Assembly (NCBI RefSeq): GCF_002751875.1
Contig: NZ_NMZM01000005.1
Location: 186,001 to 250,000, forward strand
Direction of reading: 5' to 3'
Length of the DNA: 64,000 nucleotides
Source: Oceaniglobus indicus
GTDB lineage: Bacteria; Pseudomonadota; Alphaproteobacteria; Rhodobacterales; Rhodobacteraceae
Below, piece after piece: positions 6,887 through 54,612 of the stretch. The notes beneath the pieces were generated by a model. That model made no database searches and was not told the origin of the DNA. It was given only the letters and a program-made list of their open reading frames with translations. Position 1 is the first letter of the stretch. Every line of letters begins with the position of its first letter. The translations under genes were made by a program, and so were the position numbers.

Positions 6887-6945
6887 GCCGGCAGGTCGTT
6901 GACCCGACCGCTGCCGTTCCGCAATGGCGCGGGCCATCGGATCTT

Positions 6946-6966
6946 GAGTATTTAAGGCAAGAAAAA
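6946..6966 (+). repeat. dispersed 3' element, copy 1 (downstream of apt)
   Basis: This is one of four copies of GAGTATT-N4-GCAAGAAAAA in the window. It begins 60 bases after the apt stop codon, reads in the direction of apt transcription, and follows a GC-rich hairpin (CGGCAG 6889-6894 with CTGCCG 6911-6916, inner GTCG/CGAC). On the opposite strand, GAGTATTT recurs at 7016-7009, downstream of the convergent FAD-oxidase gene, but without the A-rich half. Confidence 0.7.
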
Positions 6967-7036
6967 ACCGGGTTGGCCACGGCGGGTCGCCCGGCTTCTC
7001 ATTGATCCAAATACTCGCGCCGCAGGCATCCGGTGC

Positions 7037-8431
7037 CTACAGCACGGCGCCCGGGTTCATGATGCCAAGCGGGTCCAACGCGGTCTTGATCGCCCGCATC
7101 GCCGCGAGTTTCGCGGGATCGCCATAGCGGTCCAACGCGCCGACCTTCAGTCGGCCAATTCCATGTTCCGCACTGAAGGATCCACCGTGCGCGGCGACCA
7201 GGTCATCGATCACCCGGCGCAACCCGTCTTCCTTGTGTTTGTGATCGGCGACGCGTTCGCCCTCTGGCGCGAAGATGTTGTAGTGCAGGTTGCCGTCGCC
7301 AAGATGACCAAAGCAGTTGATGCGGAAATCGCCGTGCGCGGCGACGTGGCCCGGGGCTTCTTCGATGAAACCGGCCACGGCGCCGAGCGGCAGCGAGATG
7401 TCGTTGGACAGGATGGCGCCCGTCCGCCTGTTGGCCTCGGGGATCGTTTCGCGGATCGCCCAGAACTCCGCGCGCTGGGACAGCGAACTGGCGATGACCC
7501 CATCGCTGGCCAGCCCGGCGTCCATCCCCGCTTCGAAGATCGACGACAGGATGTCGGTCGGATCCTGATCCGCACCCAGGCCGACATCGATCAGCACCAT
7601 CCACGCGGGGATGTCCGCGAACGGCTGTCGCGGCGGCAAACCGGTATCGCGCAGGAAACGCAAACCGACGCCCGAGATCAGCTCGAACGCCGAGACGGCG
7701 CCGGGCGCGCAGCTGTGGGCGATGGACAACAGCGACAAGGCGGCGGCGGGGCTTTGCACCACGATCAACGCGGCCCCTTGGCGTGCAGGGCGTGGGAACA
7801 ACCGCAGGCTGGCCGCCGTGATGATCCCAAGGGTGCCTTCGGCGCCGATCAGCAGGTGACGCAGATCGTATCCGGTATTGTCCTTTCGCAACCGGCGCGC
7901 CCCGTGCCAGATGGTGCCGTCGGGCATCACCGCTTCCAAGCCCAGGCACAATTCGCGGGCGTTGCCATAGCGCAGCACGTTCACCCCGCCCGCGTTCGTC
8001 GCGAGGTTGCCGCCGATGCGGCATGATCCCTCGGACGCCAGGGACAGCGGAAAAAGCCGATCGGCCTCTTGCGCGGCATCCTGCACATCGGCAAGGATCG
8101 CCCCCGCTTCCGCGATCATCACGTTTTCTTCCGGATAGACCGCGCGGATGGCGTTCATCCGCTCCAGGCTCAGCAGGATCGGCAGGGGGCCGTCCGGCTG
8201 GATCTGCCCACCCACAAGGCCGGTGCCCCCGCTCCACGGCACGATGCCGATCCGATGGCGGGCGGCGAACCGCACCGTTCGCGCAACGGTTTCCGCGTCA
8301 CGCGGTGCGACGAGGCAGGCGGCCTGCCCTTGCCAGCGTCCGCGCGGCTCGCGCAGGTATTCCTCGGTCAGCGGGCGCAGGGGGTCGGCGCCGATGCTTT
8401 CGGTCAGGTCGGTGATCAGGGCGTCGGTCAT
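7037..8431 (-). CDS. FAD-linked oxidase, D-lactate/glycolate dehydrogenase (GlcD/D2HGDH) type
   Basis: The 464-residue protein has an N-terminal PCMH-type FAD-binding domain, with the pyrophosphate-binding segment VPWSGGTGLVGGQ (about 65-77) and a conserved SEGSCRIGGNLATNAGG region. The C-terminal domain is of the FAD-oxidase type, with FGHLGDGNLHYN and the near-terminal AEHGIGRLK characteristic of D-2-hydroxyacid dehydrogenases. Substrates in this family include D-lactate, glycolate and D-2-hydroxyglutarate, and the sequence alone does not decide among them. ATG 8443 is an alternative start. It lies 168 bases downstream of a RimJ-like gene on the same strand, so coupling to the oxidase operon is uncertain. 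Confidence 0.88.
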   Translation of the reverse strand: MTDALITDLTESIGADPLRPLTEEYLREPRGRWQGQAACLVAPRDAETVARTVRFAARHRIGIVPWSGGTGLVGGQIQPDGPLPILLSLERMNAIRAVYPEENVMIAEAGAILADVQDAAQEADRLFPLSLASEGSCRIGGNLATNAGGVNVLRYGNARELCLGLEAVMPDGTIWHGARRLRKDNTGYDLRHLLIGAEGTLGIITAASLRLFPRPARQGAALIVVQSPAAALSLLSIAHSCAPGAVSAFELISGVGLRFLRDTGLPPRQPFADIPAWMVLIDVGLGADQDPTDILSSIFEAGMDAGLASDGVIASSLSQRAEFWAIRETIPEANRRTGAILSNDISLPLGAVAGFIEEAPGHVAAHGDFRINCFGHLGDGNLHYNIFAPEGERVADHKHKEDGLRRVIDDLVAAHGGSFSAEHGIGRLKVGALDRYGDPAKLAAMRAIKTALDPLGIMNPGAVL

Positions 8432-8599
8432 GGGATTCAGCATGAGGGCATGAAACCCCAAGCGCGCGGCGCCCGCAAGGTCGCCGATGTGGCCCCGGCG
8501 ACGATGCCGCCCAGAGCCTGGCCCGGCCGCTGTATCCGTGCGTGACAGTGGGCTCGCCCCCCGCCGAGCGATACGCGGCAAGCCGCAAGTTGACGATGC

Positions 8600-9184
8600 T
8601 TAGCCGACGGTCGTCTTGCCGCGCCGATCACCGCGCAGGTTGGCATAAAGCACGTGGTTGCGCCAGCGCCCGGCGATCTGGAGATAGCTCTGCGCGACGC
8701 CTTCGTATTTATAGCCGCAATTTTCCAGCAATCCGCGTGACGCGGTGTTTTCGGGCAGGCAGGCGCTCTCGATCCGCGACAGGTCCAGCGTCGTGAAGGC
8801 ATGATGGATCAGCGCGGTCACCGCCTCGCGCATGTATCCCTGGCGCCCGAAGGGTTCGCCGATCCAGTATCCGACGGTGCCTGCCTGGGCCGGGCCGCGC
8901 CGGATATTGTCCAGCGTCACCGCCCCCAGCAGCATCTGATCGCTGCGCCGGATCAGGAACAGCGGAAGGGCGGTGGCGTTGTCGATGGTGCGCTGCGCCC
9001 AGTATACCCGGTTGGTAAAGCTCTTGCGCGACAGGTGGTCGGGCGACCATGTCGGCTCCCACGGGGTGAGGAAATCGGCGCTGTCCTCGCGCAGGGAGGT
9101 CCAGGCGCGGAAATCGCCATGGTGGGGCGCGCGCAGGGTCAGGCGCTCGGTTTCGATCCTGACCCGACGCCGTTTCAATAGCAT
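8600..9184 (-). CDS. RimJ/RimL-like GNAT N-acetyltransferase
   Basis: The 194-residue protein begins with the strand RIETERLTLRAP typical of the RimJ/RimL branch. It also has VGYWIGEPFGRQGYMREAVTALIHHAF (acetyl-CoA motif, about 108-134) and the ENTASRGLLENCGYKYEG segment of the family. RimJ and RimL acetylate ribosomal protein N-termini, but close paralogues modify other substrates, so the symbol is withheld. Its ATG shares one base with the stop codon of the M16 protease gene (TGATG), indicating translational coupling at the end of the cta-thrC operon. Confidence 0.87.
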   Translation of the reverse strand: MLLKRRRVRIETERLTLRAPHHGDFRAWTSLREDSADFLTPWEPTWSPDHLSRKSFTNRVYWAQRTIDNATALPLFLIRRSDQMLLGAVTLDNIRRGPAQAGTVGYWIGEPFGRQGYMREAVTALIHHAFTTLDLSRIESACLPENTASRGLLENCGYKYEGVAQSYLQIAGRWRNHVLYANLRGDRRGKTTVG

Positions 9185-10446
9185 CAGGCCGACAGCCTTG
9201 CGGTGAGGGCCTCCAGATCCGGGGCATTGTCGGCAGGGCCGTAGAGGGCCATGGCCGCCGGACCGCCGCCGATCACCTTGCCGGCAAAGTCACGCACGTC
9301 GCCGGTGGTGACCGAATCGATCCGGGCGATGGTTTCGTCCAGATCCGGGATCCGGTCCCAGATTGCCAGCAGGCGGGCCAGACGCTCGGCCCGCGACGAC
9401 GGGCTTTCCAGCCCCATCAGCAATCCGGCCTTCATCTGGGCGCGGGCGCGCGCGACCTCTTCGGGGGCGATGTCGCTGGCGGCGCGCTTCATCTCGTCCA
9501 TCGTCAGTTCTGCCAGATCAGCGATCTGCGCCGCGCTGGTGCCTGCGTAAAGCGTCAGCATCCCGGTGTCGGCATAGGATCCGGCTTGGGCAAAGATGGT
9601 ATAGCACAGGCCGCGCTTTTCGCGCATTTCCTGGAACAGCCGCGATGACATGCCGCCCCCCAGCGCGCTGGCATAGATCTGGGCGGTGTACATCGCCGGA
9701 TCGCGGTATCCGGGCGCTTCCATCCCGAGGGTGAAATGCACCTGTTCCAGCGGCCGCATTTCCCGGCGCTGGCCACCGATGAAGCGGGCGGGCGATGCCA
9801 CCTCGAACGGGCGGGCAGGCAGATCGGCGAAAATCTTCTCGGCCGCCATGCAAATCGTGTCGTGATCGACCGCGCCCGCGGCCGCGACGATCATCTGGCC
9901 CGGCGCATAGCGTTCGCGCACGAAGGTCGCCAGATCGTCCTTGGAAAACGCCGACACCCGTTCGGACGGCCCGAGGATCGAGCGGCCCATGGGCTGATCG
10001 GGATAGGCGACCTCTTGCAGCCAGTCGAAGACGATATCGTCCGGTGTGTCCAGAACCTGGCCGATCTCCGACAGGATCACGCCACGCTCGACCTCGATCT
10101 CGGACGGATCGAAGATCGGGTTCAGCACGATGTCGGAAATCACGTCGAGCGCCAGCGGCACGTCGGCTTCGAGAACGCGCGCGTAATAGGCCGTGGTCTC
10201 GCGCGAGGTATAGGCGTTGATATAGCCGCCCACGTCCTCGATCGCCTCGGCGATCTGCAACGACGTGCGCCGCTTGGTGCCCTTGAACGCCATGTGTTCG
10301 AGAAAATGGGCGATGCCGTTCTGTTCGGGGCGTTCGTGCCGCCCCCCGGCGTTCACCCAGATCCCCACGGATGCGGATTTCAGCCCCGGCATGTTTTCGG
10401 TGACGATGCGAAGGCCGTTGGCCAATGTATGTGTCTGGACGGTCAA
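9184..10446 (-). CDS. M16 family zinc protease (processing-peptidase-like)
   Basis: The 420-residue, single-unit insulinase/pitrilysin-family protein carries the inverted zinc motif HFLEH at residues 47-51 and the downstream glutamate in the ERGVILSEI segment (about 118-126) that completes the metal site. It resembles the bacterial ancestor of mitochondrial processing peptidase beta. No signal peptide is evident, so it is probably cytoplasmic; its substrate is unknown. It overlaps the thrC stop by four bases (ATGA) and its own stop overlaps the following acetyltransferase start. The thrC-M16 pairing occurs in other Rhodobacteraceae to my knowledge. Confidence 0.92.
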   Translation of the reverse strand: MTVQTHTLANGLRIVTENMPGLKSASVGIWVNAGGRHERPEQNGIAHFLEHMAFKGTKRRTSLQIAEAIEDVGGYINAYTSRETTAYYARVLEADVPLALDVISDIVLNPIFDPSEIEVERGVILSEIGQVLDTPDDIVFDWLQEVAYPDQPMGRSILGPSERVSAFSKDDLATFVRERYAPGQMIVAAAGAVDHDTICMAAEKIFADLPARPFEVASPARFIGGQRREMRPLEQVHFTLGMEAPGYRDPAMYTAQIYASALGGGMSSRLFQEMREKRGLCYTIFAQAGSYADTGMLTLYAGTSAAQIADLAELTMDEMKRAASDIAPEEVARARAQMKAGLLMGLESPSSRAERLARLLAIWDRIPDLDETIARIDSVTTGDVRDFAGKVIGGGPAAMALYGPADNAPDLEALTARLSA

Positions 10447-11828
10447 GACGCGATGTTCTTTCGGATGAAGGATTGAATGTCGGACAGATCGTTGGCGATC
10501 CGGTTGACGCGTTCGGGCCGGTCATACAGATCGGCCATGCGGTTCGGAAGGGCCGGACGGTCGCCCATGGCGGCCTCGACCGCATCGGGAAACTTGGCCG
10601 GATGGGCCGTGGCCAGTGCGATCATCGGCACGGCCGGATCCAGATGTTCGCGCGCCACCTTCACGCCGACGGCCGAATGCGGACACAGTATTTCGCCGGT
10701 GCGCGCATGGGTGTCGCGGATCGTCGCGGTGGTTTCTTCCTCGGACGCGCGGCCCGAATCGAAATGCTCGCGCAGGGTTTCCAACGCGCCCTGCGACACC
10801 GTGAACCCGCCGTTATCGGACAGTTCCGCCATCAACTGGCGCACCGCGCCGCCGTCGCGCCCGTAGGCATCGAACAACGCGCGCTCGAAATTCGACGACA
10901 CCTGGATGTCCATCGACGGGCTGATCGTGGGCTCGACCCCGTCCTTGCGATGCGCGCCGTCGGCCAGCGTGCGGTGCAGGATGTCGTTGCGGTTGGTCGC
11001 CACCACCAGCCGGTCGATGGGCAGTCCCATGCATTTGGCGATGTAGCCTGCGAAGATGTCACCGAAATTGCCGGTGGGCACGGTAAAGCTGACCTCGCGA
11101 TGGGGCGCGCCCACCGCGACGGCCGAGGTGAAGAAATACACCACCTGCGCCAGCACCCGCGCCCAGTTGATCGAATTGACCGCCGTCAGACCGACCGAAT
11201 CGCGGAAATCGAAATCGTTGAACATTGCCTTCACGGCCGCCTGACAGTCGTCGAAATCGCCGTCGATGGCGATGGCATGGACGTTGGCTTCGGCCGGGGT
11301 GGTCATCTGGCGGCGCTGCACCTCGGATACGCGACCGTGAGGATAGAGGATGAACACGTCGACGTTGTCCAATCCGCGAAACGCCTCGATCGCCGCGCTG
11401 CCGGTGTCGCCGGATGTCGCGCCGACGATGGTGATGCGGTCGCCGCGCCGGCCCATCGCCTCGGTGAACATCTGGCCGATCAGTTGCATGGCGAAATCCT
11501 TGAACGCCAGCGTGGGGCCGTGGAACAATTCCAGCAGGAACAGTCCCGAATCGAGCTGTTTCAGCGGTGCACGGGCGTCGTGGCCGAACCCGGCATAGGC
11601 GTTCGCGATCAGACCGCGCAGCACATCCTCGGGCAGGTCGGTGAATTGCGCAACGATGCGATAGGCCACCTCTTCATAGGGCAGACCGGCCAGGGCTGCG
11701 ATCTCGTCGTGCGTCATTTGCGGCACCGATTCCGGCACATACAGCCCGCCGTCCCGGGCCAGACCGGCCAGCATCGTGTCCTCGAACCCCAGAACCGGGG
11801 CCTTGCCGCGTGTCGAGATGTAATTCAT
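10443..11828 (-). CDS. thrC: threonine synthase
   Basis: This PLP enzyme converts O-phosphohomoserine to threonine, the last step of threonine synthesis. The 461-residue length and the N-terminal MNYISTRG are typical of the long (class I) ThrC type. The PLP lysine is in HGPTLAFKDF (Lys 110), and the ATSGDTG phosphate-binding loop and NSINWARVLAQ segment follow. The gene lies within the cytochrome oxidase cluster, overlapping the SURF1 gene upstream and the M16 gene downstream by four bases each, so it is presumably transcribed from the ctaC promoter region. No leader peptide or attenuator is seen directly upstream. Confidence 0.95.
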   Translation of the reverse strand: MNYISTRGKAPVLGFEDTMLAGLARDGGLYVPESVPQMTHDEIAALAGLPYEEVAYRIVAQFTDLPEDVLRGLIANAYAGFGHDARAPLKQLDSGLFLLELFHGPTLAFKDFAMQLIGQMFTEAMGRRGDRITIVGATSGDTGSAAIEAFRGLDNVDVFILYPHGRVSEVQRRQMTTPAEANVHAIAIDGDFDDCQAAVKAMFNDFDFRDSVGLTAVNSINWARVLAQVVYFFTSAVAVGAPHREVSFTVPTGNFGDIFAGYIAKCMGLPIDRLVVATNRNDILHRTLADGAHRKDGVEPTISPSMDIQVSSNFERALFDAYGRDGGAVRQLMAELSDNGGFTVSQGALETLREHFDSGRASEEETTATIRDTHARTGEILCPHSAVGVKVAREHLDPAVPMIALATAHPAKFPDAVEAAMGDRPALPNRMADLYDRPERVNRIANDLSDIQSFIRKNIAS

Positions 11829-12523
11829 CGGTGTTCCTCGGAAGTTCGGGCGTGGGGTCCGACCCGCCTCATACGCGACAGCAGGAACGCTGTCATCCCC
11901 GCCCAGATCAGAGCCAGGGAAAACCAGGTCATCGCGTATTGCAGATGATCGTTCGGAATGCCTTCGGTCCCCACCGGCAGCGGTGTGATGCCGGGCACGT
12001 CCGGCGTGATGGCGCGGGCGACGATCATGAAAGGCTCGGCCCTCAGCGCAGCCGACATTGCCGCGACGTCGCGGGCGAACCAGATGTTGGCATCCCGGTC
12101 GGGATCGGGGGTGAAGCCATCGGTTTCTTCCGGCCAGTGCAGGTTGCCGATGATGGCAACCTCTTGGGGTGGTCGAGGGGCATCCTTTGCCGGGGTGGCG
12201 ATGACGCCGAGATCGACCAGAACCCGCCGCCCTTCGACCGTGTCGACGGCGGAGATCACACGGTAAACGGCGCCCATCTCCTTGACCGACGCCAAGACAT
12301 GAAGTTCGTCGCCGGTCGTCTGGCCCGCGATCTGCACCGGAAGATACCGATCATCGCCCGCCTGCGGTGCCGCGGGCAGCGGCACGGGGTCGGCGGCGAT
12401 GCGCGATTCGATCTGCGACAGCACCTCCTGTTTCCAGGTCAGCCGCTGCACCTGCCAGACGCCCAAGGCGATCAGCACGGCACATCCCACGATCCCGAAT
12501 ATCAAGGGAATGACGAAACGCAT
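11825..12523 (-). CDS. SURF1 family cytochrome oxidase assembly protein
   Basis: The 232-residue protein has the SURF1 architecture: one transmembrane helix at each end (about residues 2-24 and 196-216) and a periplasmic domain between. The first helix leads into LGVWQVQRLTWKQ, the conserved LGxWQxxRxxWK motif of the family. SURF1 proteins assist heme a insertion into subunit I of aa3 oxidases. It is the last assembly gene of the ctaC-ctaB-ctaG-ctaE series and overlaps thrC by four bases. Confidence 0.9.
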   Translation of the reverse strand: MRFVIPLIFGIVGCAVLIALGVWQVQRLTWKQEVLSQIESRIAADPVPLPAAPQAGDDRYLPVQIAGQTTGDELHVLASVKEMGAVYRVISAVDTVEGRRVLVDLGVIATPAKDAPRPPQEVAIIGNLHWPEETDGFTPDPDRDANIWFARDVAAMSAALRAEPFMIVARAITPDVPGITPLPVGTEGIPNDHLQYAMTWFSLALIWAGMTAFLLSRMRRVGPHARTSEEHR

Positions 12524-12606
12524 GATCGGATCCTCAAACGCAGGGAACGCCGGAATTTACCCCGGCGCTCCCCCCAACGATATGAACGGCGGTCGGCGAC
12601 CCCTGC

Positions 12607-13407
12607 TCAGCTGCCCCAGACATAGATTGCGGCGAACAGGAACAGCCAGACGACATCGACGAAGTGCCAATACCAGGCGGCCGCTTCGAAGCCGACGTGT
12701 TGTTGCGGGGTGAAATGCCCGGCCCTTGCGCGCATGTAGCACACGAACAGGAAGATCGTGCCGATGATGACGTGGAACCCGTGGAAGCCCGTCGCCATGT
12801 AGAAGTTCGCGGCATAGATGTTGCCGGCAAAGCCGAAGGCGGCGTGGCTGTATTCGTAAGCCTGGAAGATGGTGAACAGAACACCCAGAATGACCGCCAG
12901 CAGGAGACCGTTCTTCAGGTCCTTGCGGTTGTTTTCATGCACCAGCGCATGGTGCGCCCAGGTCACGGCACATCCGGAACACAGCAGGATCAGCGTGTTG
13001 ATCAGCGGCAGATGCCAAGGATCGAACACTTCGAGACCGACGGGCGGATATTCCTGGAACGCGGCGGGCTGTTCCGGGCCACCGGGATACATGGCGTGCT
13101 TGAAGAAGCTCCAGAACCAGGCGGCGAAGAACATCACCTCGGACGTGATGAACAGGATGAAACCGTAACGCAGACCGATCATCACCACTGGCGTATGGTC
13201 GCCCTGGTTGCTTTCGGTCACGACCTCGGACCACCACGCATACATCACGTAAAGCACCAGCGCGAGGCCGATGAAGAACATGTAGGGCGTGATGCCCTTC
13301 ATCCACAACACGGCGCCGAACAGCATGATGAATCCGCCGACGGACCCAAGAAGCGGCCAGATGGAGGGCTGGAGAATGTGATAATCGTGGTTCTTTTCGT
13401 GCGCCAT
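12607..13407 (-). CDS. ctaE: cytochrome c oxidase subunit III
   Basis: This integral membrane subunit of the aa3 cytochrome c oxidase has 266 residues and about seven hydrophobic helices. Recognisable segments are [16 protein letters not shown] near the N-terminus, [16 protein letters not shown] (about 89-104), and [16 protein letters not shown] followed by the histidine-rich end of helix VI. The C-terminus [16 protein letters not shown] is strongly conserved in the family. Subunit I (ctaD) is not in the window, as is common in Rhodobacteraceae where it lies elsewhere. It lies 50 bases downstream of ctaG. Confidence 0.97.
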
Positions 13408-13457
13408 TTCAGTGTCTCTCGCGTCTGGCCCGTGGGTCGGGCTTATGATTTGGATGC

Positions 13458-14015
13458 TCAGGGCTGAACGCTCAGGGCGGCCTGCTGTTCGGGCAGTGGG
13501 ATCTCGTAGAAGGTGTAGGACAACGTGATGTGTTTGACAAACTTCGCGTCGCGGTCATCGACGATCTCGGGATCGACGTAATAGGTCACGGGCATCATCA
13601 CCCGTTCACCAGGCTGCAAGACCTGTTCGGTGAAACAGAAACAGTCGATCTTGGTAAAGAACCCGCCTGCCTCGTAGGGATAGACATTATAGGATGCCTG
13701 CCCGGCGATCGGCCGGTCGGTCGGGTTATACGCTTCATAGAACGCAAGGCCGGTTTCGCCGATCCGCAGTTCCGTCGTGCGTTCGACGGGCTTGAATTCC
13801 CAGGCCATGCCGCGTTCGGTCGAGGCATCGAACCGGATGCCGATCGTGCGATCCAGAACCACGTCCGAGCCGGCGCCGACGGCTGTGACACCACCGAACC
13901 CCGTGACCTTGCAAAACAGGTTATAGGCCGGAATCGCCGCCCAGGCGAGCGATCCCATCACCACCACCACGCCCAGCATCTTCATGGCCGTGCGTCCGTT
14001 TGCATCCAGTGTCAT
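13458..14015 (-). CDS. ctaG: cytochrome c oxidase assembly protein CtaG/Cox11
   Basis: This protein delivers copper to the CuB centre of subunit I. The 185-residue protein has one N-terminal membrane anchor (about residues 11-31) followed by [16 protein letters not shown], the Cox11 signature. The copper-binding [10 protein letters not shown] motif lies near residues 112-121, with the two cysteines present, and the PVTYYVDPE segment follows. Its start codon overlaps the stop of the preceding small gene by four bases (ATGA), as expected for translational coupling in the oxidase operon. Confidence 0.95.
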
Positions 14016-14206
14016 TTTTCAAGCTCCTCACCGGGGAGCAGTTCGGGGCGCACGACATGGTCGAACCCCTGAACCGCACCGATCTGACGGACCTTGACCA
14101 CCGTCAGGCCGAACACAATGAGAATGAGCGCGGCCAGCGTCAGGCCGACCCCCAGATTGCGCGAAAAGCGCCGCTTGTGGATTTCATGTTCCGCGTTCAG
14201 CGCCAT
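14012..14206 (-). CDS. small single-helix protein of the cta operon (CoxF-like)
   Basis: The 64-residue protein has a basic N-terminus (KRRFSRN), one transmembrane helix at about 16-35, and a short hydrophilic tail ending in acidic residues. Its position between ctaB and ctaG is that of a short ORF known from alphaproteobacterial oxidase operons and sometimes called CoxF; no function is firmly established to my knowledge. The start at 14206 follows the ctaB stop by one base, and the stop overlaps ctaG. An ATG 33 bases upstream, inside ctaB, is less likely. Confidence 0.82.
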   Translation of the reverse strand: MALNAEHEIHKRRFSRNLGVGLTLAALILIVFGLTVVKVRQIGAVQGFDHVVRPELLPGEELEK

Positions 14207-14207
14207 C

Positions 14208-15140: not shown

Positions 15141-15208
15141 GGTTTCGTCCGATCAGTTCTGCTTGAAAACGGGGCAAGGTCGGCCGGCGACCCTGCCCTG
15201 TCGTGACA

Positions 15209-16132: not shown

Positions 16133-16312
16133 GTATCGTTCCCGTTCGGCTGTGGGCGGTCCGGCCACCCGCTGACGGATCACCGACTTGCACCGGCATC
16201 CGTTGTGTTCTGGCGTTCTGAAACCATATCAGACACGATTGGACAAGCCAAACCATTGCGGCAATCAGCCGCCAGACACCGTATCGTGCGCCATCAGCCC
16301 GAAGGAACCCCC
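16133..16312. promoter_or_regulatory. divergent intergenic region between ctaC and tldD
   Basis: These 180 bases must hold the promoter for the ctaC operon (leftward) and for tldD (rightward). The stretch 16210-16260 is AT-rich relative to the surroundings. I could not find a -35/-10 pair with canonical spacing that I would defend. Confidence 0.5.
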
Positions 16313-17734: not shown

Positions 17735-18116
17735 GCCGCGGCCGCTGCGCCGGTTGAAATGAAGGAAGTGGGGCCAGCCCCACACCCCGGAGTATTGAGG
17801 GCAAGAAAAAGCCCGGACGCGGATTTTGCCGGATTTGCGGCCGGGTCGTTGGCGTCCGAAGCCTTGGTGCGCGGCGAGGCTTGCGCGGACAACCCGATCG
17901 AGGCGGATGGAGATTGCACCCGGGATCAGGACACGGATGCGTCGGGTGTTCGGCAGGCGAGCCGCCACGCACGGTTGGCGGGGGGCGATCCGCCCCTCGG
18001 GCCATGCGAGATGATGCCCGCACGGCCCTCGCGATGCCGTCCTGGGCGCGCCTGGGCGAAAATGCTGATTTCGCGCAGGGCCGGATCCGTCCTATGCCAC
18101 CTGCCGATGCCCGCAA
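17735..18116. other. 382-base intergenic region between convergent tldD and J-domain gene
   Basis: Short frames cross this region but none has family resemblance or a ribosome-binding site. It holds a small hairpin GTGGGGC/GCCCCAC (17768-17783) followed at once by copy 2 of the dispersed 3' element. I see nothing identifiable in the remaining 300 bases. Confidence 0.6.
17790..17810 (+). repeat. dispersed 3' element, copy 2 (downstream of tldD)
   Basis: This copy of GAGTATT-N4-GCAAGAAAAA starts 56 bases after the tldD stop, in the sense direction of tldD, six bases beyond a GC-rich hairpin. The four spacer bases are GAGG. Confidence 0.7.
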
Positions 18117-18746: not shown

Positions 18747-18819
18747 TGAAACGCCTTTCCGACTCGGGCCTCGGAGTTTAGAGATGTAGGTTGTGGAGTG
18801 AAGAGGAGATTGGATAAAA

Positions 18820-19077: not shown

Positions 19078-19080
19078 GCG

Positions 19081-21690: not shown

Positions 21691-21854
21691 CGTGAAACGT
21701 CCCTTCGGCTGACGCCTGCGTTCTATTTCACGCGTCGCATCGGGGCAAGAGCGGGTGGATTCCCGCCGATGCGGAATCCGTCCGGTTGTCAGCACAACGA
21801 CTCGGCGTATAACGCCCGGGCCGGGACAAGGGTCCGGTGCTGCCAACACGAGAT

Positions 21855-24399: not shown

Positions 24400-24432
24400 C
24401 GGCCGCCGGCCCGGCAATGCGGCGTGGGTGGG

Positions 24433-25863: not shown

Positions 25864-26048
25864 CGGGTGCTTTCGGGATTGGCGGCGTCCGTCAGGACAG
25901 GTGAAACGGCTGGGCGGAACGCCATCGCCGACGCGCGCCGCGCCGACAAGAAGGAGGGGCGGATCTGCCCCTTGAACACGAACCGGTCGAAAAATGCAAT
26001 TTCATGGGTCGCGTGGCGGGTGGACACCGCCAGAACACCAATGCTCCG

Positions 26049-27584
26049 TCACAGCAGCCATTCAACGGGCAGCCAACCGATGACGGTCAGCGCCACGGTC
26101 TTGAGCAGGGTGGCGCCCGGTTCTGCGGCCTGCACGGCGTCGCGGCTTCGCCACGACAGATCGCCCTCGGTCAATGCCACCTCCCATGCCACACCTTCGA
26201 ACTTGCGGTCGAACGCTGCATGCATGCGGGTCGCCATGTCGGCGCTATCGATCAACAGGCCCATTTCGGTGTTCAGGGTGGTCGAGCGCGGATCGAAGTT
26301 GAACGAGCCGATGAAGATCCGTTCGCCATCCACCGCGAACGTCTTGGCGTGCAGGCTTGCCCCCGATGATCCGAAGGGGCCGATCTTGTCGCGCGGGGTC
26401 GAAACCGATGCCTGCCGCTTCAGCTCGAACAGCTCGACTCCGGCGGCCAGCAGGTCGCGCCGGCGCTTGGCATACCCGGCGTGGACCGGCAGCACATCGG
26501 TCGCGACCAGCGAATTGGTCAGCATCCGCACCTGCACACCGCGGTCTTCAAGCGTCTCGAACGCCCTGACCCCGGCCACGCCCGGCACGAAATAAGGCGT
26601 TATCCCGTCGAACCGCGTTTCGATCCGACCCACCGCATGGGCCAGTCGCGACGCCAGCAGATCCTCGCGCGCGACCGCGCCCTGCCCCTTGACGGGATCA
26701 TCGCTGACCAGCACGACATCGGTCCATTCCAGACCAAGCCGGCCGGTGCCGAGATCGCGGATCAGGTCCGACTCGGCGACGATCCGGCGATAGTCGGCGA
26801 GTTGCGGATCATCCGCCAATCGTTCGACCCGCGCCGTGATCGGATTGTCGTCCGGTGCGCGCCCCACGATCGGCCCCGCAGGATGCACGGCCCGGGCAGC
26901 CCAGTAGCGATCGAAATCATCGGCAACCTCGCCGACAATGTCGCCCACCGCCAGCACGTCGAGATCGACATAGAGCGCGGTCGGCCCGGTATCGAAATAC
27001 TCGTCCCCGATGTTGCGTCCGCCAAGGATCGTCGCGGCCCCGTCCACGGTCAGCGACTTGTTGTGCATCCGCCGGTTCAGGCGAAAGAAGTCAAAGCCAT
27101 AGGACAGCACCTTGAACCGGCGCAAATTGAACGGGTTGTAGATCCGCACCTCGGCGTTCTCGTGGGCGTTGAGTGCGGCCAGTTCGGGGTCCAGCCCCGC
27201 GGTGCCGTTGTCATCGACAAGCAGACGCACCCGCACGCCGCGTTCGGCCGCGCGCATCAGCGCATCCAGCAGAAGCGTTCCGGTCAGATCACCGTGCCAG
27301 ATATAATATTGCGCATCGATCGAGGATGTCGCCGCGTTGACCAGCAGCATGCGCGCGGCAAAGGCGGCCGCCCCTTCACCCAGCGGCGCAACCCCCGTCT
27401 TGCCGGGATGATCGGCCCACCGCTGTTGCACCAACGCGGCCAGGGGCGATGTCCCGACCGGGGGAAGGGCCGTGCTATCGGTGCGGTCGGTGACCTCGGG
27501 CAAGGCAAAGACGATCCGCGCGACCACGATGGCAACGGCCACAATCGCGACCAGCGCGACCAGCGTCTTGACGACGGTTTTCAC
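26049..27584 (-). CDS. phospholipase D family protein, ClsC-like
   Basis: The 511-residue protein has an N-terminal anchor helix (about 5-28) and two HKD motifs: MHNKSLTVDG followed by ILGGRNIGDEYFD (about 170-195), and LHAKTFAVDG followed by IGSFNFDPRS near residue 410. The first resembles E. coli ClsC/YmdC rather than ClsA, so it may make cardiolipin from phosphatidylethanolamine and phosphatidylglycerol; this is inferred from similarity. The start overlaps the DUF2955 stop by four bases. A second, different PLD-type synthase gene follows directly. Confidence 0.86.
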   Translation of the reverse strand: MKTVVKTLVALVAIVAVAIVVARIVFALPEVTDRTDSTALPPVGTSPLAALVQQRWADHPGKTGVAPLGEGAAAFAARMLLVNAATSSIDAQYYIWHGDLTGTLLLDALMRAAERGVRVRLLVDDNGTAGLDPELAALNAHENAEVRIYNPFNLRRFKVLSYGFDFFRLNRRMHNKSLTVDGAATILGGRNIGDEYFDTGPTALYVDLDVLAVGDIVGEVADDFDRYWAARAVHPAGPIVGRAPDDNPITARVERLADDPQLADYRRIVAESDLIRDLGTGRLGLEWTDVVLVSDDPVKGQGAVAREDLLASRLAHAVGRIETRFDGITPYFVPGVAGVRAFETLEDRGVQVRMLTNSLVATDVLPVHAGYAKRRRDLLAAGVELFELKRQASVSTPRDKIGPFGSSGASLHAKTFAVDGERIFIGSFNFDPRSTTLNTEMGLLIDSADMATRMHAAFDRKFEGVAWEVALTEGDLSWRSRDAVQAAEPGATLLKTVALTVIGWLPVEWLL

Positions 27585-28627
27585 AACGCACCCCTTTCAG
27601 GTGTTGCCGGATGCGGTGCATCGCTGCCGTGCCAGCCGGTCATCAGATCCAGCAGCGCGACAAGATAGGCCGCCGTGAACGCGCCTGCCATGGTCAGCAC
27701 GATTCGGGTGAAGGTGGCATAGGCCGGATCCTGGGTCGACAGCGCCCCCGCGACCAGCGACAGCATGACCGAGAACGCGTATTGATAGACCATGCTGGGC
27801 TGGGGACCGGTCAACATCCGGCTGCCCAGAAAGAGGCCCGACAGGAAGATCAGGCCCAGCAGGATCGTCAGATGCTGTGACAGCACGAACAGCCCGAGAA
27901 CGACGATCGCCATGCCGCCGCCGTAAACCGTGGCGCGCACCCGCTGGCCGGCCTCGGACCAGACGGCGCTGCGCGTCGGGAACACGATGACCATCGCGGC
28001 GACCATGGCCATCATCATGTCGGACGGTTGCATGACCGCGTAGAGCCAGAACGACAATCCCAGCAGCACGGTCGCGCGGATGATCGCGCCGGTTTCGATG
28101 TTTCCGGGGCTCGGCACGGGGTCGTCCACGTGAACCTCGCGCGTGCGCGCGGGCAGCACCAGATAGACGACGGGTCCGACAATGGCGGCAACAAGCGCGG
28201 CCTGGATGAAGCCGTCGCGCATCGTTTCCACCGTGGCGCTGCCATTCATGCCCATCACCGACATCAGCACGGCCACGATGATGATCAACATCCCCGCCTG
28301 CGCCCCGGATTGAAGGATCATCCGGAACGCGAGGAAATAGGTCAGCCACATCGCACCGACATAGACCAGCGGCATGGGGCGCAATGCCTCGACCAGCCAC
28401 GTCATCGCATAGACGAGCACGATCATGACGACGGGCGCGGCAAGCATCCTGACGGGATTGAACGCCTTGCGCTGTGCCGCGATCAGGCCCACGGGAAGCG
28501 CCGCGATGATCGGGGGCAGGGCCGGATCGATGATCGGGATCGCCGCATAGGCCAAGGCCCCCGTCAGCCCAAGGCGCACCGCGTAAAGCGGATCATCGGC
28601 GACGGTCGGGCGCGGTGTGACATACAT
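27581..28627 (-). CDS. DUF2955 (FUSC-like) inner-membrane protein
   Basis: The 348-residue, strongly hydrophobic protein has about eight to ten transmembrane segments arranged in two similar halves, with conserved-looking IIAALPVGLIAAQRKAF near the N-terminus and AAMVIVFPTRSAVWS in the second half. It matches DUF2955, a family related to aromatic-acid exporter (AaeB/FUSC) membrane proteins that pairs with HlyD-type adaptors. The HlyD gene lies only 10 bases upstream. The start at 28627 is preferred because the long upstream extension is inside the HlyD gene. Substrate unknown. Confidence 0.82.
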   Translation of the reverse strand: MYVTPRPTVADDPLYAVRLGLTGALAYAAIPIIDPALPPIIAALPVGLIAAQRKAFNPVRMLAAPVVMIVLVYAMTWLVEALRPMPLVYVGAMWLTYFLAFRMILQSGAQAGMLIIIVAVLMSVMGMNGSATVETMRDGFIQAALVAAIVGPVVYLVLPARTREVHVDDPVPSPGNIETGAIIRATVLLGLSFWLYAVMQPSDMMMAMVAAMVIVFPTRSAVWSEAGQRVRATVYGGGMAIVVLGLFVLSQHLTILLGLIFLSGLFLGSRMLTGPQPSMVYQYAFSVMLSLVAGALSTQDPAYATFTRIVLTMAGAFTAAYLVALLDLMTGWHGSDAPHPATPERGAL

Positions 28628-28637
28628 CCGGCCGCCC

Positions 28638-29735
28638 TCAGTGCAGATAACTGGTGACGGAACGGATCCGCTGTAGCGTCGCGGCGATCCAGGCCAGCGG
28701 ATGGCCCTCGCCCCCGGCAAACACGACCGCGTGGACCTTGCCGCCGACGCGCGCGGGGCGCGGCCAGGCGTCCATGCCGCCCTCGACCTCTATGCGCACG
28801 GGAATGCGGCGCGCCGGCTCGAACCAGCGATTGGTCGGCTGGTTCACGACCAGACCGCCCTGGACGTTGCGGCCCGGATTGATGCCCCACGCGATGCTCT
28901 GCACGCGGCCCTTGAAGATCTTGCCAGGCACGGCGTCAAACAACAGGTTGGCGGGATCGCCGGCCTTGACCGCCTGCAGCTGGTTTTCCCGCAGATCGAC
29001 CGTGACCCATGCCGTATCCGCATCGATGAACGTCAGCGCGGGGTTGCCGGCGCCCACGAATTGCCCGCTGGACAGGCTCACGTTGGTGACCACCCCGTAA
29101 TGTGGTGCGCGCACCATGGTCGAGGCCAGGTCGTATTGCGCCCGCTCAAGCCCCGCCTGCGCCGCCAGGATTGCCGGATTCTCGGCATTTTGCGGCCCAA
29201 GCTGTCTGCGCGCGCTTTCCAACTGGGCCTTGGCCGTTGCCAGCCGCGCCTCGGCATCCGCCAACTGGCCTCGCGCCGCGTCACCCTGGGCCGCGGACGC
29301 CACGCCGCGTTCTTCGAGACGCAGGATGCGGTCGGTTTCGTTGCGGGTCGTGTCAAGGGCGGTGCGCGCCTGCGTGACCGCCGCCTGGGCCGCAACCAGC
29401 GAGGCGGCCGAGGCATCGATCCCCTGCACCGTCGACGTCAGGTTGGCCTCGGCCTGCGCCACCGCCAGATCGAAGGGGCGCGTATCGATCGAGAACAGCG
29501 GATCGCCCGCCTGCACGACGGCGTCATCCTTGACCATGACCTGCGTCACCTCGCCCGACACGCGCGGCGCGATCTGGACCACATGGGCCGACACGATCCC
29601 GCGCGAAGACGAAGGCGCGATCCGATCGCTGAGGGCGTAAAGCACCGTCAGCACCAGCAGGACAGCGACGACGACCAGCGCGATGGCCCTGGCCGGATTG
29701 CGCGGCGTATCGTCGGAAGGGGTCTGGTCGGTCAT
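28638..29735 (-). CDS. HlyD/EmrA-type periplasmic adaptor (membrane fusion protein)
   Basis: The 365-residue protein has one N-terminal membrane helix (about 17-36), a first half-lipoyl segment (HVVQIAPRVSGEVTQVMVKDDAVVQAGDPLF), a long Ala/Gln-rich coiled coil (about 85-190), a second lipoyl half (MVRAPHYGVVTNVSLSSGQFVGAGNP) and a beta-barrel. Such adaptors link an inner-membrane pump to an outer-membrane channel. The adjacent DUF2955 protein is the likely inner-membrane partner. No outer-membrane channel gene is in the window, so a TolC-like protein would have to be shared. Confidence 0.91.
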   Translation of the reverse strand: MTDQTPSDDTPRNPARAIALVVVAVLLVLTVLYALSDRIAPSSSRGIVSAHVVQIAPRVSGEVTQVMVKDDAVVQAGDPLFSIDTRPFDLAVAQAEANLTSTVQGIDASAASLVAAQAAVTQARTALDTTRNETDRILRLEERGVASAAQGDAARGQLADAEARLATAKAQLESARRQLGPQNAENPAILAAQAGLERAQYDLASTMVRAPHYGVVTNVSLSSGQFVGAGNPALTFIDADTAWVTVDLRENQLQAVKAGDPANLLFDAVPGKIFKGRVQSIAWGINPGRNVQGGLVVNQPTNRWFEPARRIPVRIEVEGGMDAWPRPARVGGKVHAVVFAGGEGHPLAWIAATLQRIRSVTSYLH

Positions 29736-29765
29736 GGCGCATCCTTTGCTGGGGTCTTGGGTGTC

Positions 29766-30509
29766 TCAAGGGGTCAGAAGATGCCCCATACCGAAAGCGA
29801 ACAGAAAGCCGAGCGCGGCAATCGGGCCCGACATGGCCTGCATCTCGTCGAAAGCCTCGGGGATCATCGTATCGATCAGCATCACGAAAATGGCTCCGGC
29901 GGCACAGGCGATCGCGGCCGCGATATAGATGCGCGGCAACCCGCCAATGACGACATAGCCAAGCAAGGCGGAAAGGGAACAGGCCAACGCGATGGCAGAC
30001 CACAGGCCGAACACGTAGGCGGCGGATTTGCCCGCGGTCTTCATGCTGATCGCGCTCGACAATCCCTCGGGGATATTCGACAGCACGATGGCGAGGACGG
30101 TCACCACGGCAACCCCTTCCCCATCCAGCAGCGAGATCCCGATGGCCGCGGATTCCGGAATGCCGTCCAGCAACGAGCCGACGGCGATGGCAAGGGACGC
30201 GCCGACCGCCCGGGTCGACACCTTGCGCTCGCGCGCGCCGGCCCGTGCCAATGCCGCATTGGCCACGGCATAAATGCCGCCACCCAGCGCAAAGCCGACA
30301 AGGGCGGCAAGGACACCCCCGGTGGCTGTCGCCTCCTCCATCAGGTTGAACGACAGCGCCGAAATCAGCACCCCGATGCCAAAGGCCATGACCGAGGCGC
30401 TGATTGTCCTGGACAGCGGCGCGAAATATCCGACCGCCGCCCCGACCAGCAGGGCGCCCCCGGCCACCAGCCCCCACAGGGCGGCCTGGAGCGGCAACGC
30501 CATCGCCAT
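29766..30509 (-). CDS. ZIP family metal transporter
   Basis: The 247-residue protein has about eight hydrophobic helices. The metal-path motifs are LLDGIPESAAIGISLL (about 113-128) and VLSNIPEGLSSAI (about 142-154), which carry the paired N/D-x-P-E-x signatures of ZIP proteins of the ZupT/YKE4 type. It probably imports zinc or another divalent metal. The ATG at 30509 is preferred over the adjacent TTG at 30512. It lies 30 bases upstream of the HlyD gene, so it may lead this operon, though a functional link with the exporter is not obvious. Confidence 0.86.
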   Translation of the reverse strand: MAMALPLQAALWGLVAGGALLVGAAVGYFAPLSRTISASVMAFGIGVLISALSFNLMEEATATGGVLAALVGFALGGGIYAVANAALARAGARERKVSTRAVGASLAIAVGSLLDGIPESAAIGISLLDGEGVAVVTVLAIVLSNIPEGLSSAISMKTAGKSAAYVFGLWSAIALACSLSALLGYVVIGGLPRIYIAAAIACAAGAIFVMLIDTMIPEAFDEMQAMSGPIAALGFLFAFGMGHLLTP

Positions 30510-30674
30510 CAATCCACGCTCGGCCGGGCGGCCGGCAGGGATCGGCCGTTCCTTCGCGATGCCGTCTGAAGAACATTCATCCTTCGTGCATAGGCCAGTG
30601 CGAGGCCATGTGGCAACACAGTCGCAAGACCACGCGCCACCGCCGATCCTGGATCGGGGAGCGGGGCGCCAACG

Positions 30675-30703
30675 AAAACAGCCACCGGAAATCCGGTGGC
30701 TGT
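30675..30703 (-). terminator. intrinsic terminator of rpmI-rplT
   Basis: An inverted repeat (30678-30689 with 30692-30703, top of the stem GGAAATCC) is followed on the minus strand by TTTTCG. It lies 57 bases beyond the rplT stop and separates the ribosomal protein genes from the ZIP operon. Confidence 0.8.
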
Positions 30704-30760
30704 GTCGCAGAATGCAGATGACCGGCTGTTCAACCAGCCATTCGGTTCAACACCGTCAAA

Positions 30761-31126
30761 TCAGGCAGGCAGTGCGCCCTTGGCCTGGTTCACGATGGTC
30801 GCGAACGCGTCGGGTTCGTTCACGGCGAGATCGGCCAGAACCTTGCGGTCAACCTCGATCCCGGCCAGCGAAAGACCGTTGATGAAGCGCGAATAGGTCA
30901 GTGCTTCGTCATGGGCGCGGACGGCGGCGTTGATCCGCTGGATCCACAGCGCGCGGAAGTTGCGCTTGCGGTTCTTGCGGTCGCGCGTGGCGTACTGGTT
31001 GGCCTTGTCGACGGCCTGGGTTGCGGTGCGGAAGTTCGTCGAGCGCGCGCCGTAATAGCCTTTCGCAGCCTTCAGAACCTTCTTGTGACGGGCGTGGGCG
31101 ACGGTTCCACCTTTGACTCGGGACAT
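30761..31126 (-). CDS. rplT: 50S ribosomal protein L20
   Basis: L20 binds 23S rRNA and is needed early in large-subunit assembly. The 121-residue sequence is unmistakable: a basic N-terminus with [54 protein letters not shown] and [15 protein letters not shown]. It follows rpmI by 12 bases. The usual first gene infC is absent here; in this lineage rpmI-rplT commonly stands apart. Confidence 0.98.
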
Positions 31127-31138
31127 TTCTGGGCCTCC

Positions 31139-31339
31139 TTAGCGGGCGTAGGGCATGTAGGACTTGATCAGCTTCTGATCGGGCTCGGACAGAACCCGGG
31201 TTCCGCGCGCGTCGCGGATGAACTTCTTGCTTCGCTTGATCATGCCGTGCCGCTTGCCGGCCATTCCGCCAACGACCAATCCGGTCGCCGTCACCTTGAA
31301 GCGCTTCTTCGCGCTGGATTTCGTCTTCATCTTGGGCAT
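31139..31339 (-). CDS. rpmI: 50S ribosomal protein L35
   Basis: The 66-residue protein is L35: [20 protein letters not shown] at the start, [20 protein letters not shown] in the middle, and a C-terminal IKSYMPYAR. The start at 31339 is the standard MPKMKT; a longer open frame to 31453 is not homologous and runs into the promoter. A GGAGACGG site precedes the ATG. Confidence 0.98.
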
Positions 31340-31417
31340 TTCCGTCTCCTCGTCTTTGATACGGTTAAGGCGCGACTCGGCATGCCACTTCGGCCGGACG
31401 CACCATCGGAAAGTCGC

Positions 31418-31446
31418 TCTATAAGAGCGGGCGTTCAGACTGGCAA
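31418..31446 (-). promoter_or_regulatory. sigma-70-like promoter of rpmI-rplT
   Basis: On the minus strand TTGCCA (31446-31441) and TATAGA (31423-31418) are separated by exactly 17 bases. Transcription would start near 31411, giving a leader of about 70 bases before rpmI. The match is direct; activity is inferred. Confidence 0.7.
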
Positions 31447-31466
31447 GGGGCAATAAGGTGTATCGG

Positions 31467-31691
31467 TCAGTTCACGATGCGGCCGATGACCCGCACGAAC
31501 GCCCCCGGAATATCGTCAAGCGCATAGCCCCCCGGATGCGACGTCGTCGCCCAATAGATCAGGCCGGCGGCCAGAACGATCAACACCGCGGCCGACCTTG
31601 GCGCACGGCCTTCGGAAAAGGACGACAGAAGTGCGGGAAACGCCAGCGCCGCGAAAATCACTCCGAGAACGAGCGCAATATCCGGCTGCAT
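31467..31691 (-). CDS. small two-helix membrane protein
   Basis: The 74-residue protein has two hydrophobic stretches (about 4-22 and 34-50, the second [17 protein letters not shown]) with a basic stretch between them (EGRAPRS) and a C-terminal amphipathic segment. No family is recognised. It lies 31 bases below the pyruvate kinase stop on the same strand, so it is probably co-transcribed with pyk. Confidence 0.7.
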
Positions 31692-31722
31692 GGCGTCTCC
31701 CTTTTCCGGCCCCTGGATCAGC

Positions 31723-33168
<1,446 letters not shown>

Positions 33169-33194
33169 GCGAAGTATCCTGTCTTGGTCTGGCG

Positions 33195-33204
33195 CTTGTA
33201 CAAG
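33195..33204. promoter_or_regulatory. perfect palindrome upstream of pyk, possible operator
   Basis: CTTGTACAAG is a perfect 10-bp palindrome in the pyk leader. A weak promoter (TTGCTC, 17-base spacer, CATAAC on the minus strand) lies just upstream of it, so a bound regulator could block pyk transcription. It could also be chance. Confidence 0.3.
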
Positions 33205-33400
33205 TCAGCGGCGTTATGCCGGTATTCCCATATCGGAGCAATACCGCGTTAAAACCGGACCGGAATCGACGACGTTTGCGGTAACATCCGGGTGCCGGCG
33301 CGTCCGAATGCCCAATTACCGGGCAAACGGTGTCCGGGTCACGACGTCGCCCTTGACCCGCGTGGGGCCGACGCCCAAATCCTGATCCAGGAGGATCCCA

Positions 33401-33691
33401 ATGGACAACATGACACAGACCGAACTGGAAGCCGCCGCATTCCGCCGCCTGCGTGACCACCTGGCGACGCGGACCGACGTCCAGAACATCGACCTGATGA
33501 ACCTCGGTGGCTTCTGCCGCAACTGCCTCAGCCGCTGGTACCAGGAGGCCGCCAACGACCGCGGCATCGAGATGTCCAAGGACGAGGCGCGCGAGATCTT
33601 TTACGGCATGCCCTACGACGACTGGAAATCACGTCACCAGACGGAAGCCACGAAAGAACAGAAGGCAGCGTTCGACATCTCGCACGGCTGA
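33401..33691 (+). CDS. DUF1244 family protein
   Basis: The 96-residue protein matches DUF1244, a small helical family frequent in alpha- and gammaproteobacteria: FRRLRDHLATRTDVQNIDLMNLGGFCRNCLSRWY (about 13-46) with its FCRNCL double cysteine, and YGMPYDDWKSRHQ (about 68-80). Function is unknown. A CAGGAGG site lies just before the ATG. The gene's 3' flank carries a hairpin and copy 3 of the dispersed 3' element. Confidence 0.92.
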   Translation: MDNMTQTELEAAAFRRLRDHLATRTDVQNIDLMNLGGFCRNCLSRWYQEAANDRGIEMSKDEAREIFYGMPYDDWKSRHQTEATKEQKAAFDISHG

Positions 33692-33723
33692 TCGTTCGCC
33701 GCTGCGCGGCGCGCCTTCGGCGA

Positions 33724-33744
33724 GAGTATTTTCAGCAAGAAAAA
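33724..33744 (+). repeat. dispersed 3' element, copy 3 (downstream of the DUF1244 gene)
   Basis: GAGTATT-N4-GCAAGAAAAA begins 33 bases after the DUF1244 stop, in the sense direction. It follows a hairpin TCGCCG (33696-33701) / CGGCGA (33718-33723) that touches it. It faces copy 4, and the two can pair over 20 of 23 positions. Confidence 0.75.
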
Positions 33745-33790
33745 GCGGTGAACCCGTTGGCGCCTTCTGTCGGATCAACGAACGCCCAGC

Positions 33791-33811
33791 TTTTTCTTGC
33801 CTTAAATACTC
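33791..33811 (-). repeat. dispersed 3' element, copy 4 (downstream of the transaminase gene)
   Basis: The same element on the minus strand begins 37 bases beyond the stop codon of the D-amino-acid transaminase gene, again in the sense direction. Its spacer TAAG is identical to copy 1. With copy 3 it makes an inverted repeat of 23-base arms (33724-33746 and 33789-33811). Confidence 0.75.
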
Positions 33812-54524: not shown

Positions 54525-54525
54525 C

Positions 54526-54606: not shown

Positions 54607-54612
54607 ACGCCG

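What the first reader, a model, noticed from the sequence alone, without database searches (positions are those of the whole stretch)
6889..33811. Dispersed 3'-flank element GAGTATT-N4-GCAAGAAAAA
Four copies share all 17 fixed bases with a constant 4-base gap: 6946-6966 (+), 17790-17810 (+), 33724-33744 (+) and 33811-33791 (-). By chance a 17-base match is expected far less than once in 64 kb. Each lies 30-60 bases after a stop codon and reads in the sense direction of that gene (apt, tldD, DUF1244, transaminase). Three follow a GC hairpin. This looks like a lineage-specific 3' signal, possibly for transcription termination, RNA end formation or RNA stability. I recall similar strings in Rhodobacteraceae intergenic regions but cannot verify that here.
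Basis: partly seen in the sequence, partly recalled or inferred. Interest (0 to 1): 0.7.

Follow-up and report, generated by a model that had tools for sequence, protein, structure and literature searches.

The report
Species-specific DNA word at gene ends
A short DNA word repeated about eighty times, mostly at gene ends, in one bacterium belongs to a set of such words found in many related species, and its second half differs exactly and genome-wide between species, as if something in each cell reads and standardises it.

Summary
The four copies are real. The genome holds 81 exact copies, 6 with 1-2 mismatches and 0 of the reversed control. The string is one "dialect" of an element found in many Rhodobacteraceae: GAGTATTT is shared, the right half is fixed per genome where copies were listed. 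A same-genus species (G199) has 100 copies with GCAAGAAAGA and none with GCAAGAAAAA; the window's genome has 0 and 81. In 11 of 11 shared orthologous gaps the dialects differ by species. Copies favour gene 3' ends, but in tandem gaps they point sense 24 and antisense 18 times, so the strict sense rule fails. A stem plus U-tract in the gene's direction serves 13 of 75 tandem copies. Some copies lie inside genes, two as 13-14-residue insertions. RAYT transposase is absent from 15 of 15 genomes, type IVa pilin from 8 of 9 element-rich ones. Best reading: a dispersed DNA element homogenised by an unknown sequence-reading process, tolerated and partly co-opted at transcript ends. Seven searches found no published description.

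The parts
6946..6966 (+). Dialect-A element GAGTATTT-AAG-GCAAGAAAAA, 59 bases after the stop of apt
6995..7016 (-). Dialect-B element GAGTATTT-GGA-TCAATGAGAAG, in the 3' flank of the FAD-oxidase gene 7037-8443(-), facing the apt copy
   Evidence: pair folds with z -2.9
17790..17810 (+). Dialect-A element (eighth base G: GAGTATTG-AGG-GCAAGAAAAA), 55 bases after the stop of tldD, after a GTGGGG/CCCCAC stem
33712..33722 (+). Short GC stem CGCC-TTC-GGCG just before the DUF1244 element (left-flank type H)
   Evidence: sequence; type H in 33 of 81 copies; the minimum-energy fold of the stretch prefers a longer overlapping hairpin
33724..33744 (+). Dialect-A element GAGTATTT-TCA-GCAAGAAAAA, 32 bases after the stop of the DUF1244 gene; arm of a facing pair
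33791..33811 (-). Dialect-A element GAGTATTT-AAG-GCAAGAAAAA, 36 bases after the stop of the aminotransferase gene 33848-34723(-); other arm of the facing pair
   Evidence: 33724-33811 folds with z -5.7

Best explanation
The string is one species' dialect of a dispersed DNA element of roughly 40 bp found in many Rhodobacteraceae: [GC stem or (C)GGATTT or other] - GAGTATTT - NN - R - lineage-specific 10-12-nt A/G-rich half - RC.GGG. Shown: copies are near-perfect at 17-18 positions while NN is free; the genomes looked at closely have one to three fixed dialects; orthologous gaps carry each species' own dialect; orientation is mostly not tied to the gene; copies can lie in genes. Inferred: a trans-acting, sequence-reading process homogenises the copies (molecular drive by biased acquisition or copying, or a binding protein whose specificity shifts), because about 40 bits of identity is far more than is needed to mark some 100 sites, and one base is unlikely to change at about 100 loci independently without a common reader. 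Also inferred: the 3'-end bias is mostly tolerance (away from promoters and coding), with some copies, above all facing pairs and the GGATTT type, co-opted as transcript boundaries.
For: 81 exact, 6 with 1-2 mismatches, 0 control; KL information 41.7 bits over 21 positions of the 81 exact copies. GCAAGAAAAA:GCAAGAAAGA is 81:0 in own and 0:100 in G199. Own dialect in 1 of 198 family genomes, the own one; GAGTATTT alone 199 vs 9 control. Dialects in several genera; 40 of 198 family genomes have 10 or more CGGGAGTATTT (my count; control at most 5 in any). In 140 class genomes outside the family 96 matches against 128 controls, at most 5 in one genome (my sum). Orthologous gaps: 8 own/G199, 2 own/G198 and 1 G199/G198, 11 of 11 in different dialects. 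At the G199/G198 one the element is antisense in both with homologous flanks and a changed dialect. Tandem orientation 24:18; at L066 the orientation is opposite in own and G199. In-gene copies: cobN +13 residues against 3 of 3 homologues, hydrolase +13-14 against 5 of 5. Left flanks beyond the unit are no more alike between copies than shuffles.
Against: No reader, receptor or mobiliser was identified. G183, placed in the same genus, has no excess of GAGTATTT (28 vs 26 control), and 67 of 198 family genomes have no CGGGAGTATTT, so any function is dispensable. The (C)GGATTT subset is sense-biased 16:2, which a purely orientation-blind DNA process does not predict. Turnover is high: an element is also present in only 8 of 14, 2 of 8 and 1 of 7 comparable element-bearing gaps. 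The purH copy is length-neutral, unlike the two insertions. Right-flank identities of the best pairs exceed shuffles (cause not checked). Ordinary-looking terminators stand at the DUF1244 3' end in several relatives, which favours a terminator role there. Dialect B is not exact (TCAGTAAGAAG, TCAATGAGAAG, TCGGTAAGAAG).
Confidence: 0.5

Rival explanations
1. A bidirectional transcription terminator or RNA 3'-end signal: a GC stem on either side uses the AT-rich island as its U-tract (sense UAUUU, antisense UUUUUCUUG), and facing pairs form one long hairpin.
For: Convergent gaps enriched and divergent depleted (p about 2e-6 own, 1e-8 G199; the own test used 30/43/5 before the correction). 19 of 81 copies have a facing partner within 250 nt, mostly 2-43 nt apart. 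A right-flank stem abutting the antisense T-run occurs in 21 of 146 vs 5.7% in the swap control. Both G199 and G198 keep a GC stem of different sequence at A13|290 (read by eye). Ordinary-looking terminators stand at the same DUF1244 site in some relatives.
Against: A correctly placed stem serves 13 of 75 tandem copies, against 20 of 75 on the far side. The left stem is not significantly above the swap control (33 of 146, p 0.075). Ordinary terminators outside the element occur in 5 of 44 convergent gaps with an element and 14 of 64 without, a weak difference; counting stems that overlap the element it is 12 of 44. A terminator does not need 17 exact bases or dialects.
Confidence: 0.25
2. A tiny mobile repeat (REP/MITE/Rickettsia-palindromic-element type) that inserts about 40 bp, with successive subfamilies seen as dialects.
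For: In-frame insertions in cobN and a hydrolase; several families per genome; patchy distribution; gaps longer by 36, 128 and 264 nt at the three sites empty in G199.
Against: No Y1_Tnp (RAYT) in 15 of 15 genomes (other transposases not tested). NN varies freely while the other bases are exact, which recent copying from a master does not give. Orthologous gaps with homologous flanks carry different dialects, i.e. change in place. The unit is not one palindrome: 33 of 81 have the short GC stem type.
Confidence: 0.2
3. Binding sites of a sequence-specific nucleoid or boundary protein at transcription-unit ends whose specificity co-evolves with the sites.
For: Exactness with a free 2-base gap, near orientation neutrality, in-place dialect change.
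Against: Information far above need; two or three dialects coexist in one genome; insertions inside genes; no candidate protein.
Confidence: 0.2

Closest known systems
DNA uptake sequences (DUS of Neisseriaceae, USS of Pasteurellaceae)
   Same: Exact short word far above chance, lineage dialects, inverted pairs at gene ends; passages of PMC3630211 and PMC13020248 seen.
   Different: 81-199 copies rather than thousands; two or three dialects in one genome; few copies in genes; no type IVa pilin/pseudopilin in own and in 7 of the 8 other element-rich genomes tested; no uptake data.
REP sequences with RAYT transposases
   Same: Extragenic, often with a stem, inverted pairs, several families per genome (REP features recalled).
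   Different: No Y1_Tnp in 15 of 15 genomes; the constant core is not a palindrome.
Rickettsia palindromic elements
   Same: Short elements found as in-frame insertions in protein genes of alphaproteobacteria (recalled; only search listings seen).
   Different: About 40 bp here; RPEs are longer (recalled). I know of no dialect exactness or 3'-end bias in RPEs.
Bidirectional intrinsic terminators
   Same: Position after stop codons and between convergent genes; U-rich on both strands.
   Different: Correct stem plus U-tract in a minority; sequence exactness unexplained.

Membership tests
DNA uptake sequence (DUS/USS) | Short motif in strong excess over chance, exact copies dominating | tested here: met
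   81 exact, 6 near, 0 control; GAGTATTT 199 vs 9
DNA uptake sequence (DUS/USS) | Lineage-specific dialects around a shared core | tested here: met
DNA uptake sequence (DUS/USS) | Thousands of copies, intragenic copies common (as in passages) | tested here: not met
   81-199 copies in 3.67 Mb; 3 of 81 inside genes
DNA uptake sequence (DUS/USS) | Type IVa minor-pilin receptor (ComP type, N-methyl pilin) | tested here: not met
   PF07963 absent from own genome; found in 2 of 15 genomes, G199 and G013. Tad/Flp pili not tested
DNA uptake sequence (DUS/USS) | Motif raises DNA uptake or transformation | not testable with these tools
   needs an experiment
REP/RAYT | Y1 transposase (PF01797) in the genome | tested here: not met
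   0 of 15 genomes; 5 of 14 control genomes ring
REP/RAYT | Palindromic unit next to a short head motif | tested here: inconclusive
   GC stem type in 33 of 81, GGATTT type 27, other 21
Intrinsic terminator | GC stem directly followed by a U-tract in the gene's direction | tested here: not met
   13 of 75 tandem copies; that minority may qualify
Intrinsic terminator | Located at transcription-unit 3' ends | tested here: met
   convergent 31, tandem 42, divergent 5, in genes 3 of 81; gene ends stand in for unit ends
Rickettsia palindromic element type | In-frame insertion in protein genes | tested here: met
   cobN and hydrolase copies; purH copy is not an insertion; the E2-linker copy was not aligned
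Rfam RNA families | Match to a curated family at the element | tested here: not met
   only a TPP riboswitch in the window, elsewhere (gathering threshold)

The most novel reading that the evidence does not exclude
The dialects are a self-recognition watermark for gene exchange in Rhodobacteraceae, a DNA-uptake-type or transfer-agent-type system with an unknown receptor, in which DNA carrying the cell's own dialect is preferred, so that the word spreads and is standardised species by species and isolates species genetically.
Probability: 0.18. Interest if true: 0.92.

Novelty: new variant of a known kind. Interest (0 to 1): 0.7.

Why it matters
A one-base difference held at about a hundred dispersed places between two species of one genus suggests that something reads the whole word. 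The dialects may also serve as markers of species origin: single foreign-dialect copies in G200 and G201 could be recent gene transfer (inference, not followed).

Tried and rejected
Strict sense-oriented 3' signal: rejected by 24:18 in tandem gaps and an opposite orientation at one site. General intrinsic terminator: folding of flanks is near shuffle level, and a stem in the right place serves few copies. REP/RAYT: no transposase. ComP-type uptake: no N-methyl pilin in own. Phage-borne: 1 contig for the own dialect and 1 for a related pattern in the viral collection. Recent segmental copying: flanks beyond the unit are no more alike than shuffles on the left; on the right the best pairs exceed shuffles, which I take to be facing partners but did not check. 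tldD orthologues: 80 named loci were kept of more than 590 found; 66 of the 80 were examined and 1 has a GAGTATTT-like core within 230 bases. Codon typicality of flanking genes: no difference in own (p 0.68), higher in G199 (p 0.006). My notebook calls the left stem a UNCG tetraloop; on recount it is a 4-bp stem with a 3-base loop, so I dropped that. The notebook's 24:19 became 24:18 after one search put L004 and L008 inside genes and L063 between genes (L063 because its called start looks too early, an inference), and its 13 type-B copies are 12. The 12 GAGTATTT hits in predicted genes of G199 were dropped before the counts as chance words without a dialect half. In one search one fetched G198 stretch (L298) was not used.
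Full report
Observation. The pattern GAGTATT-N4-GCAAGAAAAA occurs at the four places given, with no mismatch; shuffles give 0.05 even when 3 mismatches are allowed. I place it in Rhodobacteraceae from the named tldD relatives, nearest Kandeliimicrobium roseum at 88% identity. In the whole genome there are 81 exact copies, 5 with one and 1 with two mismatches, and none of the pattern read backwards. The 8-mer GAGTATTT alone occurs 199 times against 9 for its reversal.

Anatomy. Aligning the 81 copies gives GAGTATTT (eighth base T in 79), two free bases, a purine (79 of 81), GCAAGAAAAA, then R, C (75 of 81) and a G-rich tail. The KL information over the 21 positions is 41.7 bits; the 17 fixed bases are exact by choice of the pattern, but only 6 further copies appear when 2 mismatches are allowed. 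Left flanks fall into a GC-stem type (33), a GGATTT-like type (27) and others (21). The free trinucleotide is not random: TCA 13 against 4.2 expected, CGG 9 against 4.1, GGA 9 against 3.7. A second dialect, B, GAGTATTT-NNR-TCARTRAGAAG and close variants, occurs 12 times in 435 kb beside 17 of type A; one B copy faces the apt copy in the window.

Dialects in the family. Of 198 family genomes, own included, only the own genome has the exact string, but 131 have CGGGAGTATTT at least once and 40 have it 10 times or more (my count from the table; no control exceeds 5), for example G088 70 against 0, G132 64 against 1, G153 53 against 0. Only part of the matches is listed. Where several are listed, the right half is repeated within a genome: AACAGAAGAAG in G142, ACAAGATGAAG in G124, MCAATAAGAAA in G063, GAACAATGAAG in G134, and two dialects each in G010 and G044. 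Nine listed genomes with one to three copies show no such half, as expected of chance words. In 140 class genomes outside the family I sum 96 matches against 128 controls, at most 5 in one genome. In the same genus G198, G200 and G201 carry CAAAGAAGAAG. G199 carries that and GCAAGAAAGA plus a third family GGATATTT-NNR-GACCAAAGATG (27 in 800 kb). G183 shows no excess (28 against 26). The cleanest fact: GCAAGAAAAA is 81 in own and 0 in G199, GCAAGAAAGA is 0 in own and 100 in G199; G200 holds one copy of the first and G201 one of the second.

Change in place. I called genes with a home-made codon model, not an independent annotation, and compared syntenic gaps; many own gaps were fetched because they hold an element. 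Own against G199 (median best-hit identity 72.5%): of 14 comparable gaps with an element in own, 8 have a GAGTATTT element in G199; three of the other six hold related but divergent words, seen by eye; of 66 gaps without an element in own, none has one in G199. Own against G198: 2 of 8, one of the two in a gap where G198 has a facing pair. G199 against G198: 1 of 7 (three marks on the other side that are not dialect elements are left out). In all 11 shared gaps the dialects differ and follow the species. The G199/G198 case keeps homologous flanks and orientation while the dialect changes, and both have a GC stem beside it. Presence is therefore partly conserved and the word is rewritten.

Position and orientation. 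Of 81 own copies 31 are between convergent genes, 24 in tandem gaps in sense, 18 in tandem gaps antisense, 5 between divergent genes and 3 in genes (with the corrections). In G199 the figures are 25, 17, 8 and 1; 12 further hits in called genes are chance words without a dialect half and were dropped. Against intergenic length the bias is strong (p 2e-6 and 1e-8; the own test used 30, 43, 5 before the correction). In tandem gaps the GGATTT type is 16 sense to 2 antisense in the two species together, all other types 31 to 27; this split was made after seeing the data. One element near a 6S RNA candidate lies on the 5' side of that RNA and has opposite orientation in own and G199.

Terminator tests. 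Flank folding is close to shuffles. With a strict stem definition, the stem on the right flank abutting the antisense T-run is enriched (21 of 146 against 5.7%, p 9e-5) and the left stem is not clearly so (33 of 146 against 16.8%, p 0.075). But the stem sits in the correct place for the upstream gene in only 13 of 75 tandem copies, and on the far side in 20 of 75. Ordinary terminators outside the element are found in 5 of 44 convergent gaps with an element and 14 of 64 without; 12 of 44 if stems overlapping the element count. For a role as 3' boundary speak the facing pairs (19 of 81 have a partner within 250 nt, near variants of the core included), the stable pair in the window (z -5.7), and ordinary-looking hairpin-plus-T terminators at the DUF1244 3' end in several of the 29 relatives read by eye (30 of 55 matches became loci, own included), for example G001, G006, G039, G043 and G057.

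Copies in genes. Four copies lie in coding sequence: purH (sense), a lipoyl/E2-type linker (named by eye), cobN and an alpha/beta hydrolase (the last of type B; the last three antisense). The cobN copy is a 13-residue insertion against 3 of 3 homologues and the hydrolase copy a 13-14-residue insertion against 5 of 5. The purH copy is length-neutral against the two solved homologues printed; the E2 copy was not aligned. So copies can arrive as about 40-bp insertions, and perhaps also by base changes.

What might read it. RAYT transposases (PF01797) are absent from 15 of 15 genomes. N-methyl pilins (PF07963) are absent from 13 of 15, including own; only G199 and G013 have them. Viral contigs hold the own dialect once and a related pattern once.

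Literature. Searches for the word or for such repeats in Rhodobacteraceae gave no description (listings only, open-licence library only). For uptake sequences I read passages of PMC3630211 and PMC13020248; the latter reports uptake words in terminators of Neisseriaceae and Pasteurellaceae, and 'Rhodobacter' does not occur in its text.

Judgement. The orientation rule is wrong, and the main property, dialects standardised genome by genome, points to a process that reads the whole word. I hold that umbrella reading at 0.5, a terminator as primary function at 0.25, and a conventional mobile repeat or boundary-protein site at 0.2 each; these overlap.

Noticed in passing
window 54511-54611 (-): TPP riboswitch (RF00059, 77.5 bits).
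   Followed up: no
L066:733-890 (-) with element at 978 (+): 6S RNA candidate below the gathering score (38.1 bits); the nearby element lies on its 5' side and is oppositely oriented in G199.
   Followed up: partly
G199 C13/C24 stretches (L181-L220): A third intergenic family GGATATTT-NNR-GACCAAAGATG, 27 copies in 800 kb and 0 in 435 kb of the own genome.
   Followed up: partly
G200:C179:7891-7911 and G201:C2:86070-86090: Single copies of a foreign dialect (own and G199 type) in genomes with another dialect; possible recent gene transfer.
   Followed up: no
G183: Placed in the same genus but without any excess of GAGTATTT (28 vs 26 control): the whole system can be absent.
   Followed up: no
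L004:1501-1521 (-): Exact dialect-A word inside purH in the region read as ..SIFSKKKNLRLL.. without an insertion; chance or base-by-base conversion is open.
   Followed up: partly
own genome, NN-R positions of 81 copies: The 'free' trinucleotide prefers TCA, CGG and GGA; TCA is also common in the G199 list.
   Followed up: no
G019 DUF1244 3' flank (L245): A back-to-back pair of GGATA(T/C)TT-type elements with mirrored GC stems, unlike the usual facing pairs.
   Followed up: no
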